Shown here: one piece after another, positions 5,466 to 63,870 of the stretch
How the letters are laid out: each line of letters begins with the position of its first letter
Position numbering within the stretch: position 1 is the first letter of the stretch
Assembly (NCBI GenBank): GCA_963576475.1
Contig: OY754977.1
Coordinates: 13,144,743 to 13,208,742 of the forward strand
DNA: 64,000 bases
Source of the DNA: Molanna angustata
Taxonomy: Eukaryota > Arthropoda > Insecta > Trichoptera > Molannidae
Reading direction: 5' to 3'
Translations under genes and position numbers: made by a program
The notes under the pieces: generated by a model
Seen by the model: only the letters and a program-made list of their open reading frames with translations
Databases searched by the model: none
What the model was told of the DNA's origin: nothing

Positions 5466-5600
5466 GTATTTATTTATTTTTATTTAATTATTTTTCACAC
5501 CTTGATCACAAAGACTATTATGAAGATAACTGCTGCCCAACTAGGTAACCCTGTTCTAGGGCTAGTAGTTTACAATTTTACCAAGCCAAATATTTGACAT
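5466..5600 (-). mobile_element. LINE 3' end with hairpin (CTGCTAGCCC family)
   Basis: On the minus strand this reads CTAGCCCTAGAACAGGGTTA, then CCTAGTTGGGCAGCAG, then an (AAAT)-like tail at 5466-5485. The same 3' end occurs on + at 23264-23360 and 63766-63870. Hairpin 5529-5569 pairs ACTACTAGCCC with GGGCAGCAGT with one mismatch and one bulge. No ORF remains. Confidence 0.7.
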
Positions 5601-10490: not shown

Positions 10491-10520
10491 AAATTAAACT
10501 GAAATATTACAATGGGATTT

Positions 10521-10646
10521 ATTACCTCACAAGGTTAAGCCTGTTCTGAGGTAATACTAACAATAATTTCATTTTAGCGCCCTTGAGGTGAGATATTCAC
10601 GAAAACGGCGCTATATAAATCATCCAAATTTATTATTATTATTATA
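10521..10646 (+). mobile_element. LINE 3' UTR with (ATT)n tail and adjacent hairpin
   Basis: GCGCCCTTGAGGTGAGATA, then AACGGCGCTATATAAATCATCC and (ATT)n at 10576-10646 match the minus-strand LINE ends at 48975-49030 and 49883-49945. Just upstream, 10521-10555 forms a perfect stem ATTACCTCA/TGAGGTAAT. Read on the minus strand its loop is AGAACAGGCTTAACCTTG, resembling the loops of the other LINE hairpins, so this hairpin may belong to a second element in opposite orientation. Confidence 0.6.
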
Positions 10647-16899: not shown

Positions 16900-18190
16900 C
16901 CATTTTATTCGAATCAGCACAAAAACGTAGTTAATTGTAAAAAAAAAATATTGAAATAATTCAATATTTAAAATATCAGTGGATTAATGTGTGTAATAGT
17001 TGACATTAAGTAGGTTCTAAATATTTATTTAAAAGTAATTTGTACAATATGTTTGTTGTTCTCTTTATATTTATGTAGGTACTTATGGGCCTGACCACTT
17101 GTTTTTTCTATTTATTTTAATTTAATGTTTATAAACAAAAGAATCTTTGTTTATAGTATAATTGTTATATCCCATACAGGCTGAGCAGTGCGTGGGATTT
17201 TTGTGTGCATGGTTGCTTTGTTATGTTTGATATGTATTAATCTGGTACTAAATCTTTAATAAATAACTTAAAAGGAATCAAACTCGGGACTTTCGATTCA
17301 CTATGGTACTATGATATCTGAAATACGAAGTAACATATTTCATTTTATATCAGACAAAGAGTACAAAATGTTTATTTTGAAAGAAAAGAATAAAAATAAA
17401 ACAAAGTACCTATAGGACAACAATAAACAAGAGTATAAAACTGACCTATTATTTGATACATTATTCATCCTGTGAAAATAAAATGGGAATTGTTCGTTAT
17501 TTTCATAAAAGATTAATAAATTTTACATAAGCCATGTTGCCTCGGATTTTAATAGTTGGGATCAGGAGAATATAACAGTGAGTAGGAGCCCGCTTTAAAT
17601 ATTTAATACGAATCATTAATTACGAGATATCGCCGAACAGAATGATTAATGTCGAATAACCCAGCTTCACAAGCTGCTTTATCTGCTCATATATTATTTA
17701 TACATAGACGGGCCAAGAGTTTTTTCATCGTGTAAATTATTAGATAATACAGAAAAGAAAAAAGTTCTCATCGCGCTAATTACGTGACGAAAAAAAAAAA
17801 ATGTAAACACAAAGTTTCAGAAAATCGACAATTTATCAAAGAGTGAATAACAATTCGCTTTTCGTAGTTAAAAAACAACATTTAGGAAAGTTTGTTATAT
17901 AGTTATTTGTAACAAAACCTAGAATTTAAAAATACATAAAATAATTTATATCCAGTCAAACGATTTTCTACACTATGCCATGGAGATTTGTTTATTTATT
18001 AAGGTCGTTTGAAATATTTTGAGTTTTTTACAGCCAATACATATTCATTGGCGGAAAATTGCTAATGCCTTTATTAATTTTTTAGTTTTGTTTTTAACGA
18101 AAATTCAACAAACTGTGAAAGACTACCAAGAAGTGCGAGTATACTTGTTCTAGTCTTTATCGTTTTTTTTGTATTGGCATTATAATTATT
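16900..18190. other. Unassigned stretch with a possible LINE hairpin
   Basis: 17169-17198 can form ATCCCA/TGGGAT with an internal ACAGGCTGAGCAGTG, resembling the LINE 3' hairpins. No coding region was recognised. Confidence 0.4.
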
Positions 18191-22320: not shown

Positions 22321-22459
22321 TACACATGAACATGATGTGTTTGTGAGGGTGTATGAGGGTGTGTGTATGTGTGTGAGTGTGTGTGCGCGTGTATGAGGGT
22401 GTGTGTATATTGGTGGGAGTGTGTAAGCAAAACAGGCCATAATATGTGCCGACACCATT

Positions 22460-22860
22460 ATGGAAAAACTATGTTTAGCTCAACGATGTATAATAAAAAT
22501 AATACTCAGCAAACCCCTTGACTACCCCACTAAAGATTTTTACAGTGAATTTAAAGTTTTTGATCCGAAACAAATCTTTTTACATTATGTACTAACAAAT
22601 TTTCATAAAAATAAATTAGTTTACCCGAAAACACAACAATCTATAGCTACACGAGCCAGCACCGCTGCAAACTATGCAATTCCACACATGAGAACTACTT
22701 TTGGTCAAAGAAATTTTATTTTCATTGCCCCCAGAATTTAAAACATGTTGTCTACATCATTAAAAGAAATAGTATCGCTGAAATAATTTAAAAGAAAATG
22801 TTCCGAATACATCATGAACTACGGGAGAACTAAAATATATCAAATATTCGACATCGTAGT
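22460..22860 (+). pseudogene. Non-LTR reverse transcriptase C-terminal fragment
   Basis: ORF 22460-22741 contains LAQRCIIKIILSKPLDYPTK, then a TKQS...IATRAS segment and IPHMRTTFGQRNFIFIAPRI. This is the LQxRxIRxI...TR...RTxxGxxSFxYxAPxxWN pattern that ends CR1/jockey-like ORF2 proteins. After the stop, the same frame continues MLSTSLKEIVSLK, the usual LPxxLKxxxSL continuation. The catalytic RT motifs are absent. A 5'-truncated, mutated copy. Confidence 0.65.
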
Positions 22861-23263: not shown

Positions 23264-23360
23264 ACTGCTAGCCCTAGAACAGGTATACCTAGTTGGGCAG
23301 CAGTTATCTATTTTAATAAAGATTATTTAAATGGTGTGACAAATAAATAAATAAAAATAA
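23264..23360 (+). mobile_element. LINE 3' end with hairpin (CTGCTAGCCC family)
   Basis: Hairpin 23264-23304 pairs ACTGCT(A)GCCC with GGGCAGCAGT around TAGAACAGGTATACCTAGTT. It is followed by AATAAAGATTATTTAAATGG, GTGTGACAAATA and an (AAAT)-like tail. Identical layout at 63766-63870 and, on the other strand, 5466-5569. Confidence 0.75.
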
Positions 23361-23529
23361 AATAAAATATGTCTGATATAACTTCCAAGTTTTGTTTTGT
23401 GTTTTTATTTATTGTTTCATATATTTTTTTAGATACATATAAATCATGTTGCTATATAAAATACGCATTTTCATGGAAACTTTACGAAATACGATGGAAA
23501 TATTGTATATAGACGTATTGATGTGATTG

Positions 23530-23645
23530 TGAAATATTCCACCTCGGTACAGGCAAAGCCTAGTGAGGTGGATATAATATGTATAACGATATGTAAAAAA
23601 TGATATTGTTAATTTTTATTTATAAATAAATAAATTTATGAAGGG
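23530..23645 (+). mobile_element. LINE 3' end with hairpin (TCCACCTC family)
   Basis: Hairpin 23538-23572 pairs TCCACCTC with GAGGTGGA around GGTACAGGCAAAGCCTAGT, with an inner AGGC/GCCT stem. An AATAAATAAAT-like tail follows at about 23620-23635. It is the same architecture as the neighbouring family with a different stem. Confidence 0.6.
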
Positions 23646-24599: not shown

Positions 24600-24923
24600 A
24601 AGATAATGTATTGCAAAGGTTGAAAAATATTTATCACTACGATTCCGCAGCGATTTTAAAATTCATAAATTTTGTACTAGACAAATTCAAAACAATTACA
24701 TCTATATGGAAATAAAGAATTTCAATTACTTCCCAGATGAAATAAAACAGATTAATGATTTTAAAATGTTCAAATAAAGACTGAAAAAACATTTCACAAT
24801 ATAAACTGGTGTATGTAATGATGCATGTATTGGATATGACCAAAATTGTTTCGAATACCCGTTTTCTATTGTTTTTTTATGTATATTTGTTTTTTTTTCA
24901 CCGTTGTATAACTATGTATTTAT
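24600..24923 (+). pseudogene. CR1-like LINE, 5' part interrupted by an RTE element
   Basis: The plus frame around 24705-24800 reads KNFNYFPDEIKQINDFKMFK, a stop, RLKKHFTI, typical of the LPxEIKxxxxxxxFKxxLKxxF ending of CR1-like ORF2. The 3' UTR resumes after the nested insertion, at 26395. The frame has decayed. Confidence 0.55.
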
Positions 24924-26394
24924 CATCATCAGCAATGGCGCTACAGCCCGGTGCGAGCCTTGGCCTCCTCAAGAAACTGCCTCCATCCCGCCCTGTCGAC
25001 AGCAAGTCTCCTCCAGTTTGTCTGTCCGATCGCTCTTATATTGCCCTCGATGTCGTCCAGCCATCTCATCCTAGGTCTCCCTCTGCTTCTTCTTCCTTCA
25101 GGACAGGTGTCCAATACTTTCTTTGGGACCCGGTTATCCTCCATTCTACAAACGTGTCCGAGCCAACGTAGACGTTGTATTTTGATGTAATGGACAACGT
25201 TTGGTTCGCCATACATTATTTCTAGCTCGTGGTTAAACCGGATCCTCCAAGATCCTCCTTCACAGGTAGGACCAAATATTTTGCGAAGTATTTTCCTTTC
25301 GAACACCAACAATGCATTTTCGTCCTTCTTGGTCAATGTCCAGCATTCTGATGCATATGTCATGACCGTTCTAAGAAGAGTTTTGTAAATGAGGGTTTTT
25401 GTTTTACGAGAGATGAGTCGTGACCTTAAGTGCTTTAGCAGGCCATAATAGCATCTATTTGCCGCGGCAAGTCTTGCCCTTATTTCCGCACTGGTGTTGT
25501 TGTCCGCTGTAACAAGAGATCCCAGGTATGTGAATGATTCAACGGCTTCTAGCTGATGGGTTCCCACTGATATTGATTCGTTTCTTACGGTGATGCTATT
25601 CAGTGATGCTTTTCTTGTTGCCATATATTTTGTCTTTGAAGCGTTGATCTTTAGACCCATGTTATTGGCTGCAGACTCAAGTCTCAAGAAGTTATCCTTC
25701 ATGCAAGGCAACGTTCTAGATATAATATCGATATCGTCTGCATATGCAAGTAATTGACTTGACTTTCTGAAAATTGTTCCTGTTGTCTCTATGCCTGAGT
25801 CTCTAACAGCTCTTTCCAGGACAATATTAAATAACAAGCATGCCAATGCAGCGCCTTGTCGGAGCCCTCTATATGTTGTGAACTGTTCCGAGGTGCTACA
25901 CTGTATTTTTACACTGCAGTATGTATTGGACATGGTCATTCCGACAAGGCGCACAAGTTTAGGGGGGATGGCCAACTCCATCATTGCCTCGTGGAGCTTA
26001 ATTCTGTTGACACTGTCATATGCAGCTTTGAAGTCCACAAACAGGTGATGTGTTTCAACATTATGCTCCAGCGTTTTTTCGAGTATCTGCCGCAGTGTGA
26101 ATATTTGATCAATGGTTGACCTACCCGGTCGGAATCCACTCTGATATTGTCCCACCATTTCCTCCACAAATGGGAGTAATCTCGTGAATAGGATTCCAGC
26201 AAGTACTTTGTATGCTGTGCACAACAGTGTGATACCTCGGAAGTTTGAGCAGTTCAGAGCACCCCTTTTCTTATGCAAGGGACAGATCAGGCCATTATCC
26301 CAGTCTCTTTGCATTATTTCGGCTTCCCATATTTTATGGATGATTTGATGAAGACTTGAAGCTGCCCTGCTGCCACCATATTTTAATAGTTATT
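24924..26394 (-). mobile_element. 5'-truncated RTE-like retrotransposon, nested
   Basis: It lies on the minus strand with a very short 3' UTR and a (GAT)n-type tail at 24922-24932. The left flank TGTATTTAT (24915-24923) repeats at 26395-26403 on the right, a candidate 9-bp target-site duplication. It splits an older LINE. The body is almost entirely one open frame, implying recent insertion. The endonuclease half is missing through 5' truncation, as is usual for target-primed reverse transcription. Confidence 0.85.
24941..26314 (-). CDS. RTE-like reverse transcriptase, C-terminal 457 codons
   Basis: An uninterrupted minus-strand frame encodes the RT domain and C-terminus of an APE-type non-LTR retrotransposon. 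Visible in order are CPLHKKRGALNCSNFRGITL (fingers), FVDFKAAYDSVN with the first catalytic Asp near residue 94, GLRQGAALACLLFNIVL near 150-165, LLAYADDIDII with the YADD pair near 191-194, then INASKTKYM and TYLGS. The C-terminal block has SECWTLTKKDENALLVFERK, LRWLGHVCRMEDNRVPKK and GRPRMRWLDDIEGNIR. Homology continues upstream of the first Met through about 26385 (KYGGSRAASSLHQIIHKIW), so the Met is not a true start. The APE endonuclease region is absent. All motifs are intact, but the truncated copy cannot move by itself. Confidence 0.9.
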   Translation of the reverse strand: MQRDWDNGLICPLHKKRGALNCSNFRGITLLCTAYKVLAGILFTRLLPFVEEMVGQYQSGFRPGRSTIDQIFTLRQILEKTLEHNVETHHLFVDFKAAYDSVNRIKLHEAMMELAIPPKLVRLVGMTMSNTYCSVKIQCSTSEQFTTYRGLRQGAALACLLFNIVLERAVRDSGIETTGTIFRKSSQLLAYADDIDIISRTLPCMKDNFLRLESAANNMGLKINASKTKYMATRKASLNSITVRNESISVGTHQLEAVESFTYLGSLVTADNNTSAEIRARLAAANRCYYGLLKHLRSRLISRKTKTLIYKTLLRTVMTYASECWTLTKKDENALLVFERKILRKIFGPTCEGGSWRIRFNHELEIMYGEPNVVHYIKIQRLRWLGHVCRMEDNRVPKKVLDTCPEGRRSRGRPRMRWLDDIEGNIRAIGQTNWRRLAVDRAGWRQFLEEAKARTGL

Positions 26395-50550: not shown

Positions 50551-50785
50551 TCTATCTTTATCTCTAAGCACATCTATGTTTACATTGTAACTTATCTATG
50601 GGAAATATTGTGATTGCACATATGAATCAAATTTATTATTTATAAAACGAAAATGTGTATGTGTGGTATGTAATTGTTTTTTCTCTTAAGAAATAAATAA
50701 TATAAAATAAAATAAAATAAAATAAAGTTCGCAATTCGCACTGAATATGTTCGTATTTGATTTAAATAGAACGTAAAGTATGCCA

Positions 50786-52515
50786 TGATAAAGATGATAA
50801 AGATGGATGTATGGTTATAGACGAGGAAAAAGTCAAGGAAAGATGGAAGGAATATTTTGAAGAGTTATATGAAAGTACACAGTGCGAAAGTCTGACGAAC
50901 AACAGAATACCGATAAATGAATGTGAGAATGACAGCGAGAAAATTTCAATAGAAGAGGTCAGAGAGGCAGTGAAGCATGCACGTACAGGAAAGGCTGCGG
51001 GATTTGATTGCATACCAACTGAATTCATCAAATATGGTGGCGAAAAGACGATGGAATGGTGTCATTGCCTCTTCAACAAATGTTGGGAGACAGGACATAC
51101 TCCGTCAGATTGGAGAAACGCAGTGATTGTGCCCCTCTTTAAAAAAGGGTCAAAATTAGACTGCAAGAACTACCGAGCTATCAGTCTGCTGAGTTCAGTT
51201 GGAAAATTGTATGCTAGGATACTAGATCAAAAGTTGAGAAAGGCTACAGCAAGCAAGGTATGGGATGCACAAGGAGCGTTTGTTGGAGGTAGAGGATGCA
51301 CCGACCAAATTTGTTCCCTTCGAATGGCGACTGAAAGGGTTCTGGCAAAAAACCAAAAGCTTTTCTGCGCTTTCATAGACCTGGAAAAGGCCTATGACAA
51401 AGTAGACCGTGAAAAACTCTGGAACGTGCTATCAGTGTATGGAGCGGGTAGCAGGCTGATAGGGGCAATATCATCTCTATATGAGGAAAGCCAAGCCTGT
51501 GTGAGAATTGAAAACTCTCTCACAGGATGGTTCTCCATTAATATGGGAGTGAAGCAAGGGTGCGTACTATCACCGTGGCTCTTTAATCTATACATTGACT
51601 ACTGTGTGAGAGCACTAAAGAATGAGAACATTGGGCTGAAACTGGAAGGTGTGACTGTATGTGATCTAATGTATGCGGATGACAAAGTATTAATGGCTGA
51701 AAGCGTGGAAGACTTGGAATGTTTGGTTAAAATAGTATTCGATGGATGCATGCAAAATGGATTGAGAATGAATGCAACTAAATCTAAAGTAATGGTATTT
51801 GAGAAGAGCGAAAGACAAACAAAATGCGAGATACGAGTGGAGAATGTACAATTAGAACAAGTGGATGAATATTTATACTAAGGAAGCATGTTTCAGCGTG
51901 ATGGAAGATTGGAAAAAGATATTGAAAGGAGAGTAACGGCAGGTAATAGAGTGAATGGTGCATTAAGACCGGTAATGGCTGACCCAATTATTTCGAGGCA
52001 AGCAAAGCTCGCGGTACACAATGGTATCGTCGCACCGACTCTAATGTATGCTAGTGAGACATGGACATGGCAGAAGACGCATGAAAGTAGAATTAACGCG
52101 GTTGAAATGAGGTCACTAAGACGAATGTGTGGTAAAACGATGTATGATAGAATAAGAAATGAGGATATTAGACGAGAATGTATGATTGAAAGAAATATCG
52201 TAAGTAAGATGAAAATAAATGCCCTAAGGTGGTTCGGCCACATAGAAAGAATGAGTGATGACCGTCTGACAAAAAAAGTATACAAGGCTGATAAAAGAGG
52301 AATGAAAAGTAGAGGTCGGCCAAGAAAGAGTTGGCACGATCACATAAATGGGATTTTGAAAGATGGAGATGTTAGAAGTAAGAATAATAGAAGAGCGTGT
52401 ATGAGACGATTTATGGACGTGAATGAAGCGAGGAATGTATGTCAAGAGAGAGGAGTCTGGCGTTCGGTTCTCTCTGCCTACCCCAAATAGGGAAATGGCG
52501 TGATGGTATGGTATG
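50786..52515 (+). mobile_element. RTE-like retrotransposon with 13-bp target duplication
   Basis: GTAAAGTATGCCA at 50773-50785 and 52516-52528 flanks the element exactly. The copy is 5' truncated within the ORF, has a very short 3' UTR and ends GTGATGGTATGGTATG. Perfect duplications and a nearly open frame imply a young insertion. Confidence 0.92.
50811..52490 (+). pseudogene. RTE-like reverse transcriptase with one in-frame stop
   Basis: A single frame of 560 codons is broken only by TAA at 51879-51881. The first part (356 codons) has KAAGFDCIPTEFIKYGGE, VPLFKKGSKLDCKNYRAISL, FIDLEKAYDKVDR with a catalytic Asp near residue 180, GVKQGCVLSPWLFNLYI near 246-262 and MYADDKVLM with YADD at 288-291. 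The second part (51888-52490) has the usual C-terminus: YASETWTWQKTHESRINAVE, RWFGHIERMSDDRLTKKVYK, GRPRKSWHDHINGILKDG and SVLSAYPK. The stop falls in the EYLYxGSMF motif. Homology extends upstream to about 50786 without the endonuclease domain. Both YADD aspartates are present. Confidence 0.92.
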
Positions 52516-61791: not shown

Positions 61792-62224
61792 TTATCTTAA
61801 TTGGTCAAAAATAAAATCTGCATTTATAGATATGTGGAGTTTTGCTTAATCTATCAACGAGTAGAGAAAAGAACACATTTTGTTGTTATCATACTTGTTT
61901 TAAGGAATTCAGATCCTTCAAATAATTAAGTAAAAAACGTGCTTGTATCTGGACGTTAAAATACATAATATATTACGATTCAAATATATAATACATTGTC
62001 TATTTTGATTGCCCAAAATTTAAGGCTGAAAAACCTTGGAAAAAGATTGACAATTTCTGCTAAAATCGAAGTTGTTATTTTTTGCGATCTATAATAAATG
62101 TTTGAAGTCCTTAAATGATACCTTGTGAATAAATATAAATTTACCGCCAACCTGCTCGGCGATATTTGAAGTATTTGAAAAAATGAATAAACCACACTAC
62201 TGATACTGTCTCATTTGCATAAAA
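61792..62224. other. Unassigned stretch; starts with repeat-Y-like sequence
   Basis: AATTAAATTATCTTAATTGG at 61785-61804 resembles 33335-33355 and 47520-47540. Otherwise nothing was recognised. Confidence 0.4.
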
Positions 62225-62690
62225 ACATTGCTGAGTTTTTTCTACAGTTTTTTGGCACCAAGACTCTATAATAAAATAATGATGGATATTGAACAAAACA
62301 TATCGCATGATGGGAAAAATTTCAAAGACCTCGTTACTCGTTGGCTGAAGCAGATTGGAAGAGAAGGATCTGCCTCGGTACTCTTAGATTTTTTGAGATA
62401 GGTAGAGGTTTTAGAGTTTTTCATCCTGGTTGTCGATGTTCTAAGTGAATGGAATAAGTATGTGAAGAAAAAAAGAAAACAAATCATATGATCGCAGAGT
62501 AGCCATAGCAATTTTAAACTAGTACTGCCTCAGAACAGACTATGTCTAGCGAGGCAGTAAAATTTCCAAATGTGTGGAAAAAAATTATTGTAAAATTGTA
62601 ATTAGGTATAAATTAAATTGTATTTTGTTCCTTTGTAATATTTATCCTGTTGGAAATATATTATTCATTCATTCATTCATTCGCATGTGT
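62225..62690 (+). mobile_element. CR1-like LINE 3' end: ORF C-terminus, hairpin, (ATTC)n tail
   Basis: The frame FLAPRLYNKIMMDIEQNISH, then NFKDLVTRWLKQIGREGSAS, matches the FFxxAPRLYNxLP...FKxxLxxWLxxIGR ending of CR1-like proteins. The UTR carries hairpin 62523-62559, a perfect 9-bp stem TACTGCCTC/GAGGCAGTA around AGAACAGACTATGTCTAGC, with an inner AGAC/GTCT stem. The copy ends in CATTCATTCATTCATTC at 62665-62682. ORF, hairpin and tail are in one orientation, which fixes the sense of the hairpin. Confidence 0.72.
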
Positions 62691-63749: not shown

Positions 63750-63870
63750 CTTGGTAAAATTGTAAACTGCTAGCCCTAGAACAGGGTTACCTAGTTGGGC
63801 AGCAGTAATCTTCATTATAGTCTTTGTGATAAAGGTGTGAAAAATAAAATAAATAAATAAATATTTTTTT
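63750..63870 (+). mobile_element. LINE 3' end with hairpin (CTGCTAGCCC family)
   Basis: Hairpin 63766-63806 pairs ACTGCT(A)GCCC with GGGCAGCAGT around TAGAACAGGGTTACCTAGTT. It is followed by AATCTTCATTATAGTCTTTG, GGTGTGAAAAATA and an (AAAT)n tail. Third copy of the family seen at 5466 and 23264. Confidence 0.78.

What the first reader, a model, noticed from the sequence alone, without database searches (positions are those of the whole stretch)
62523..62559. Hairpin with covarying stem shared by several LINE 3' ends
Seen directly: five plus-sense hairpins (62523-62559, 63766-63806, 23264-23304, 23538-23572 and the reverse strand of 5529-5569), with less certain relatives at 10521-10555 and 17169-17198. 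Outer stems differ (TACTGCCTC/GAGGCAGTA, TCCACCTC/GAGGTGGA, ACTGCT-GCCC/GGGCAGCAGT, ATTACCTCA/TGAGGTAAT) but remain fully or nearly paired. The loop keeps ACAGR, a short inner stem and YCTAG or CCTAGT. Sequence changing while pairing is kept is the signature of selected RNA structure. Known: stem-loops in the 3' end of UnaL2-type LINEs and R2 are bound by the element's reverse transcriptase. Inference: this is the RT recognition structure of a CR1-like clade in this genome, with lineages that swapped stem sequence.
Basis: partly seen in the sequence, partly recalled or inferred. Interest (0 to 1): 0.8.

Follow-up and report, generated by a model that had tools for sequence, protein, structure and literature searches.

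The report
Covarying RNA hairpin in LINE tails
Many distantly related retrotransposon (LINE) families in this insect genome end in the same kind of RNA hairpin, whose stem letters have changed in matched pairs while most of the loop stayed the same, which is what one expects of a handle that the element's copying enzyme grips; the principle was already known, this set of families is new.

Summary
The hairpins are real. Six of the seven cited sites carry one motif: outer stem of about 9-11 bp, RACAGR, a short inner stem, YCTAGT. The 10521 site lies on the minus strand; 17169-17198 is at most a distant relative. The loop pattern occurs 9,232 times in the genome, its reversed form 15 times. Loci chosen by loop alone have complementary arms in 47 of 61 cases; chance matches in viral contigs in 9 of 119. 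Twelve stem types found without regard to pairing keep 114 of 119 pairs, more than any of 20,000 arm permutations or 10,000 neutral simulations. Within subfamilies most changes break the stem, so selection acted on source elements, not dead copies. A tail follows within 25-135 nt in 49 of 56 loci, and the hairpin follows the RT frame in 7 of 8 fetched long-frame copies (one deviant). Those RT halves are 38-52% identical between six families. Best reading: a "stringent-type" LINE 3' recognition stem-loop. The mechanism is known from zebrafish L2, and conserved loop plus compensated stem from a plant L1 lineage. RT binding is inferred. No SINE partner was found in a small sample; the clade was not assigned.

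The parts
62522..62559 (+). Hairpin, family A: GTACTGCCTCA / GAACAG..GTCTAG / CGAGGCAGTA; inner stem AGAC/GTCT
   Evidence: fold z -3.5; model R2 E 9e-14, itself in the model
62204..62398 (+). C-terminal 65 codons of the LINE reverse-transcriptase frame that ends about 120 nt before hairpin A
   Evidence: profile of LINE proteins, E 2.2e-5, profile positions 933-982
62663..62682 (+). (ATTC)n tail of the family A copy
   Evidence: sequence
63766..63806 (+). Hairpin, family B: ACTGCT-A-GCCC with one bulged A, loop GAACAGGGTTACCTAGT
   Evidence: fold z -3.3; R2 E 9e-5, family not in the model; 5'-truncated copies with a common 3' end
63840..63863 (+). AATA-type tail of this family B copy
   Evidence: sequence
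23264..23304 (+). Hairpin, family B2 (loop middle TATA)
   Evidence: fold z -2.7; R2 E 3e-6, family not in the model
22397..22831 (+). Broken C-terminal part of the LINE RT frame upstream of the B2 hairpin, 58.6% identical to the family B1 RT
   Evidence: tblastn E 5e-46; profile E 4e-25 for 22427-22738
23341..23368 (+). AATA-type tail of the B2 copy
   Evidence: sequence
23538..23572 (+). Hairpin, family C: TCCACCTCG / GTACAGGCAAAGCCTAG / TGAGGTGGA
   Evidence: fold z -4.8; R2 E 5e-13, itself in the model; same stem, loop middle one base different, with its loop 452-459 nt after the stop of frames of 989-1,087 codons in L127, L129, L131
23621..23635 (+). TAAA-type tail of the family C copy
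   Evidence: sequence
5529..5569 (-). Hairpin, family B1, minus strand, one stem pair mutated
   Evidence: fold z -1.3; R2 E 8e-4, family not in the model
10520..10557 (-).
   Evidence: R2 E 1e-11 on minus against 7e-4 on plus; another copy of family D is in the model
17169..17198 (+). Distant or unrelated hairpin: copy of another repeat family of which some copies keep ACAGGC..GCCT but not CTAG
   Evidence: not found by R2; relatives, where R2 scores them at E 0.77 or worse

Best explanation
These are the 3' ends of many families of one group of LINEs (non-LTR retrotransposons with a frame of about 1,000 codons). Each family's RNA ends in a stem-loop shortly before a short-repeat tail. Shown: the motif, its place at LINE 3' ends, maintenance of pairing while stem letters change, and wide RT divergence between families with the same loop. 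Inferred: the element's own ORF2 protein binds this stem-loop, reading loop bases and stem geometry but not stem letters, and so positions the tail for target-primed reverse transcription. A substitution in one arm is then tolerated only when repaired in the other (often through G.U), so stems drift in matched pairs while the loop stays. Inserted copies are dead and decay freely.
For: Loop chosen without looking at the stem: arms pair at <=-9 kcal/mol in 47 of 61 loci, against 2.2% of 3,000 random arm pairs from the same stretches and 9 of 119 chance loop matches in viral contigs. Twelve stem types found without regard to pairing: 114 of 119 cells paired, permuted arms mean 92.3 and maximum 111 in 20,000, neutral simulation from a paired ancestor mean 67 and maximum 100 in 10,000. 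Thirteen-row alignment: 30 cells changed on both sides against 10.9 in shuffles, covariation score 0.442 against 0.227, 0 of 500 shuffles reach either; the inner stem also has two-sided changes. Genome-wide 2x2 at one stem pair: G..C 205, A..T 1,350, G..T 23, A..C 17. Position: tail-like run 25-135 nt downstream in 49 of 56 loci, against 6 of 56 upstream and 273 of 2,000 random stretches (5 of the 61 loci, chimeric, truncated or unclassed, left out). Family B copies share the 3' end and are truncated at variable 5' points. RT link: hairpin after the frame in 7 of 8 fetched long-frame copies; RT ends upstream of the A, B2, D, G, K, K2 and L hairpins. RT halves of B1, C, G, N, O, R are 38-52% identical. 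Mechanism: ZfL2-1 and ZfL2-2 need the stem-loop; stems can be exchanged, loops cannot; the EN-RT linker binds it (passages of PMC4176376).
Against: No binding or retrotransposition data for these elements. No SINE or other partner sharing the tail was seen. Representatives of stem types are the best-preserved copies, and types were sorted by eye, which favours pairing. Two of the five measures are not extreme (pairs with a two-sided change 9 against 6.3, 25 of 500 shuffles as high; further pair types 18 against 15.9, 89 of 500), and 7 of its 13 rows came from a scan that required pairing. Loop conservation is partly built in, because most loci were chosen by the loop. Family O (L130) keeps a long stem and ACAGGC..GCC but lost CTAG. 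In L125 the hairpin is only 61 nt after the stop and its tail was not located. L126 shows no hairpin (its frame end looks chimeric). The stop-to-hairpin distance varies from about 60 to 480 nt.
Confidence: 0.82

Rival explanations
1. Simple common descent: all families inherited one UTR segment, and pairing is a passive leftover without selection on structure.
For: Upper-stem letters CCTC/GAGG and the loop are shared by most of the 13 rows of A3; related families share flanking letters.
Against: A neutral simulation from a fully paired ancestor, with the observed divergence, loses pairing (mean 67, maximum 100 against 114 observed). RT halves have diverged to 38-52% identity while B1, C, G and N keep ACAGG..CCTAGT. 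Copies within a subfamily lose pairing by one-sided changes (38 one-sided, 30 of them breaking, against 2 two-sided, of 516 cells).
Confidence: 0.05
2. The hairpin is selected RNA structure, but for another step than RT recognition: RNA stability, export, 3' processing, ORF2 translation or packaging by an ORF1 protein.
For: Position in the 3' UTR alone fits these too; nothing measured here separates them.
Against: Analogy with zebrafish L2, where the ORF2 linker binds the stem-loop and loop identity decides retrotransposition (PMC4176376, passages). Closeness to the tail fits priming.
Confidence: 0.12
3. DNA-level palindrome: end of a DNA transposon, Helitron (hairpin plus CTRR end; recalled) or MITE.
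For: Hairpin plus CTAG superficially recalls a Helitron 3' end.
Against: CTAG is inside the loop, not after the hairpin; RT frames upstream; variable 5' truncation; AATA-type tails.
Confidence: 0.01

Closest known systems
Stringent-type LINE 3' stem-loop, zebrafish ZfL2-1/ZfL2-2 and eel UnaL2 (PMC4176376, passages)
   Same: Stem-loop near the 3' end before short repeats; loop specific, stem letters exchangeable if paired; protein with EN and RT. The paper also notes four L2 LINEs, about 60% identical in RT, with almost the same stem-loop.
   Different: ZfL2-1 and ZfL2-2 differ in loop; here one loop is kept by families (B1, C, G, N) whose RT halves are 38-52% identical, with different stems. 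The loop letters (ACAGR..YCTAGT with an inner stem) are not those that I recall for UnaL2.
Conserved-loop, compensated-stem hairpin of a monocot L1 lineage and its SINEs (PMC3747384, passages)
   Same: Same evolutionary signature: stem letters vary with compensation, loop and a flank conserved.
   Different: Other clade and host; there SINEs share the tail, here none was found.
Avian CR1 3' hairpin plus octamer microsatellite (PMC8665684, passages)
   Same: Hairpin followed by a short-repeat tail, proposed RT recognition site.
   Different: Tails here are AATA-type, (ATTC)n or A-rich, not ATTCTRTG; membership of the CR1 clade was not tested.
Lepidopteran LINEs (Zenon/CR1, Daphne, L2) in PMC4016481, PMC6740152, PMC6685494, PMC1925062 (passages)
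   Same: Likely host group: the only two of 120 listed protein matches that name an organism are Mythimna loreyi and Plutella xylostella.
   Different: The word 'hairpin' does not occur in the main texts of these four papers, nor 'loop' in the three where I looked for it; supplements were not readable.

Membership tests
Stringent-type LINE 3' stem-loop | Stem-loop in the 3' UTR close to the tail | tested here: met
   49 of 56 loci with a tail-like run 25-135 nt downstream; hairpin after the RT frame in 7 of 8 long copies, one of them deviant
Stringent-type LINE 3' stem-loop | Pairing kept while stem letters change | tested here: met
   genome counts
Stringent-type LINE 3' stem-loop | Conserved loop | tested here: met
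   In long-frame copies chosen by ORF: ACAG in 5 of 5 families (B1, C, N, O, R), CTAGT in 4 of 5, O lacking it. Its invariance in 13 of 13 rows of A3 is partly built in, since the loop was used to find them
Stringent-type LINE 3' stem-loop | Bound by ORF2p and needed for retrotransposition | not testable with these tools
   needs an assay
Stringent-type LINE 3' stem-loop | Tail shared with a SINE partner (frequent, not obligatory) | tested here: inconclusive
   14 upstream stretches of about 1.4 kb showed no shared non-LINE head abutting the hairpin; small sample
CR1 clade | RT groups with CR1 in a reference tree | not tested
   no named clade references could be fetched; the tree holds unnamed relatives
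CR1 clade | APE-type endonuclease plus RT in one frame | tested here: met
   by homology only: matches spanning most of P0049 (residues 9-981 in the best), a protein listed with PF03372 and PF00078; shared by other clades
CR1 clade | ATTCTRTG-type octamer tail (amniote CR1) | tested here: not met
   the tails seen are AATA-, ATTC- or A-rich

The most novel reading that the evidence does not exclude
One RNA handle is shared by LINE families whose RTs have become strangers: B1, C, G and N keep ACAGG..CCTAGT although their RT halves are 38-52% identical, and shorter RT ends tie A, D, K and L to the same hairpin. The loop would then define a compatibility group: any active member could copy RNA of the others in trans, and the loop is frozen by this shared use while stems drift. 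Families O (CTAG lost) and R (changed inner stem) would be lineages that left or are leaving the group.
Probability: 0.25. Interest if true: 0.7.

Novelty: new member of a known kind. Interest (0 to 1): 0.45.

Why it matters
It gives a natural, genome-wide counterpart to the laboratory stem-swap experiments on zebrafish L2: many stem types with a fixed loop in one genome that also holds uninterrupted long-frame copies. This makes the question of what a LINE enzyme reads in its RNA, and whether families can copy each other, directly testable, and gives a searchable model (ACAGR-inner stem-YCTAGT) to annotate LINE 3' ends and find SINE partners in insect genomes.

Tried and rejected
A second helix between the hairpin and the tail (TTCCA..TGGAA) is visible in A, D and J and by eye in M and (as ACCAA/TTGGT) K, but not in B, C or N; it may be shared sequence, so it is not claimed. 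Model R1 was built with a miscounted structure string and was not used; R2 replaces it. In one search the rows for D and C were shifted by one base; one search corrects this. The set includes seven hairpins (A, A_L025, C, D, E, E2, F) found by a scan that required pairing, so the stem-blind set is the one to trust; O, R and two further model finds (L037, L045) were left out of that count. The crude single-linkage clustering merges types, and its permutation (p 0.003, 7 clusters, 3 of them chimeric, truncated or single loci) is weak. L125 was first labelled as lacking a hairpin because the search pattern demanded ACAG[AG]; model R2 found it (E 0.002). Two other LINE RT frames in the window, 24941-26389 (-) and 50766-52490 (+), were looked at by eye downstream and no such hairpin was seen; R2 gives only a chance-level match there (24696-24743 -, E 9.3). 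Rfam at gathering scores has no match in the window other than two tRNAs. The nearest solved RTs are R2 and L1, which does not place the clade. Helitron and MITE readings rejected.

Full report
What is there. The window lies in a 995 Mb genome of 131 contigs. The only two of 120 listed RT relatives that name an organism are from Mythimna loreyi and Plutella xylostella, so a lepidopteran is likely; this is inference. Six of the seven cited sites carry one hairpin motif: outer stem of about 9-11 bp, RACAGR, a 2-4 bp inner stem with a short terminal loop, YCTAG (CTTG in the window's family D copy), then T closing on the stem. In family B and its kin (G, H, I) one A bulges from the 5' arm (for example ACTGCT-A-GCCC). 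A covariance model built without any family B sequence finds the three family B sites, and puts the 10521 site on the minus strand. The 17169 site is not recognised. It belongs to a repeat family (115 places listed, 40 of 603 candidates scored); of eight stretches fetched, the L257 array reads ACCCACAGACAGGCTGTGCCTTGTGGGAT and others are close to it: ACAGGC..GCCT without CTAG. A distant relation is possible and unproved; R2 scores these at E 0.77 or worse.

Is it more than chance. The loop pattern GAACAGGN4-6CCTAGT occurs 9,232 times in the genome, against 15 for the reversed pattern. I took the first 68 of the 100 listed places, in order along contig C1, without looking at the stem; eight of them are one tandem array, reduced to one copy, which leaves 61 loci. 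The 14-nt and 16-nt arms pair at -9 kcal/mol or better in 47 of 61. Random arm pairs at similar spacing from the same stretches do so in 2.2% of 3,000, and chance occurrences of the loop in viral contigs in 9 of 119. By my reading, at least seven of the 14 misses are 5'-truncated inside the arm (L059, L070, L097, L107, L110) or interrupted just after the loop (L061, L079).

Covariation. Twelve stem types that were found by loop or by ORF, not by pairing, keep 114 of 119 pair cells over pairs 3-12. Permuting 3' arms gives a mean of 92.3 and a maximum of 111 in 20,000. A simulation of neutral change from a paired ancestor on a tree of the same divergence gives a mean of 67 and a maximum of 100 in 10,000. 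Representatives are the best-preserved copies, which helps pairing. The tool count on 13 no-bulge hairpins gives 93.6% paired cells, 30 cells changed on both sides against 10.9 in shuffles, and a covariation score of 0.442 against 0.227 (0 of 500 shuffles each); the slid controls fall to 34-53% paired. Two other measures are weaker: pairs with a two-sided change 9 against 6.3 (25 of 500 shuffles as high) and further pair types 18 against 15.9 (89 of 500). Both the outer and the inner helix contain two-sided changes; seven of those 13 rows came from a scan that required pairing. Genome-wide at one pair of the outer stem: G..C 205, A..T 1,350, G..T 23, A..C 17; copies are not independent events, and the A..T count includes the eight-unit array. 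Inside subfamilies the pattern is different: of 516 pair cells 38 changed on one side (8 still pair as wobble) and 2 on both, so inserted copies decay freely and the compensation is a property of source lineages.

Where it sits. Family B copies share one 3' end with an AATA-type tail and are cut at different 5' points (20 stretches fetched, the window's own copy among them; 19 show the B hairpin by pattern, and the model finds it in the twentieth, L039). In the loop-selected set a tail-like run lies 25-135 nt downstream in 49 of 56 loci, against 6 of 56 upstream and 273 of 2,000 random stretches of the window; five chimeric, truncated or unclassed loci of the 61 were left out. The frame upstream of family B is an RT (665 aa part, RVT_1 E 1.7e-40). 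Parts of the same kind of frame lie upstream of the hairpins of A and B2 in the window and of D, G, K, K2 and L: of 14 upstream stretches fetched, 6 matched the profile at E<0.01, one of them (L116) more than 1 kb from the hairpin.

Long-frame copies. A search with a related protein scored the best 47 of 37,301 candidates; all 47 are open over 968-1,087 codons, as expected of the top of such a list. I fetched the 3' part of 8. Three (L127, L129, L131) carry hairpin C, its loop 452-459 nt after the stop; L132 carries hairpin B1; L128 carries a new stem (N, TCATCTC/GAGATGA); L130 carries a deviant hairpin (O, CCTCACCT/AGGTGAGG with ACAGGC..GCC but no CTAG; R2 E 0.015); L125 carries a new 11-bp stem (R, CTGGGTGATTC/GAATCATCCAG with inner stem AGTC/GACT; R2 E 0.002); L126 shows none, its frame end looking chimeric. 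Pairwise identity of the C-terminal RT halves among B1, C, G, N, O and R is 38-52%, and in a midpoint-rooted tree they fall on several branches among unnamed relatives. B1, C, G and N share ACAGG..CCTAGT letter for letter, so the loop has outlived most of the protein sequence around it. Because loci were mostly found by the loop, its constancy elsewhere is partly built in; the ORF-chosen copies are the fair test (ACAG in 5 of 5 families, CTAGT in 4 of 5).

How it most likely works. Established for zebrafish L2 LINEs: retrotransposition needs the 3' stem-loop, stems can be exchanged between elements, loops cannot, broken stems fail, and the region between EN and RT binds the RNA (PMC4176376, passages read). 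The pattern here, loop fixed and stem drifting in pairs, is what that mechanism predicts over evolutionary time. Relatives of the protein have a conserved kPWIT.Gl..cirkRd.LH stretch between EN and RT, a candidate for the RNA-binding region; this is a lead, not a test. The step from structure to RT binding is inference.

Known or new. [quoted passage not shown] Four papers on lepidopteran LINEs and SINEs do not contain the word hairpin in their main text, and two library searches for Lepidoptera with hairpin or stem-loop terms listed none that describes it by title and start of abstract; supplements and subscription papers were not seen. I therefore call it a new member of a known kind. The less ordinary part is how far the RTs have diverged under one loop.

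Limits. No R-scape was available; the neutral simulation is a simple stand-in. The clade is unassigned. No SINE partner was found, but the search was small. Only one genome was examined.

Noticed in passing
L054 (G000:C1:831500-832700): Tandem array of 87-bp units, each a family K LINE 3' piece with its hairpin (8 exact loop copies): a satellite seeded by a LINE tail.
   Followed up: partly
window 17130-17270; G000 C23:8776757-8781584, C1:44500483-44502082, C10:22788834-22789835, C23:17947369-17949379, C3:42394661-42394990, C1:36782191-36783280: The repeat family behind the 17169 hairpin also forms tandem arrays with periods of about 110-140 bp at these six places.
   Followed up: partly
G000 C1:6864699/6864938, C1:16490277/16490519, C1:25057094/25057335, C2:1383096/1383335, C2:18407729/18407976, C2:25520207/25520441: Hairpins with the family K arms and loop repeatedly come in pairs about 240 nt apart, as if an element with a duplicated 3' end had spread (listed places).
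   Followed up: no
L059, L070, L097, L107, L110: 5 of 61 loop-selected loci lose similarity inside the hairpin's 5' arm, which may mean that reverse transcription tends to stop at the stem-loop; not compared with truncation elsewhere.
   Followed up: no
G000, 47 places: The 47 best-scoring matches to a related LINE protein (of 37,301 candidates) are open over 968-1,087 codons, in several families, so the genome holds young copies.
   Followed up: partly
62537-62669 and L053, L106, L083, L089: Possible second helix (TTCCA..TGGAA, or ACCAA..TTGGT) between the hairpin and the tail in families A, D, J, M, K; not seen in B, C, N (and by eye).
   Followed up: partly
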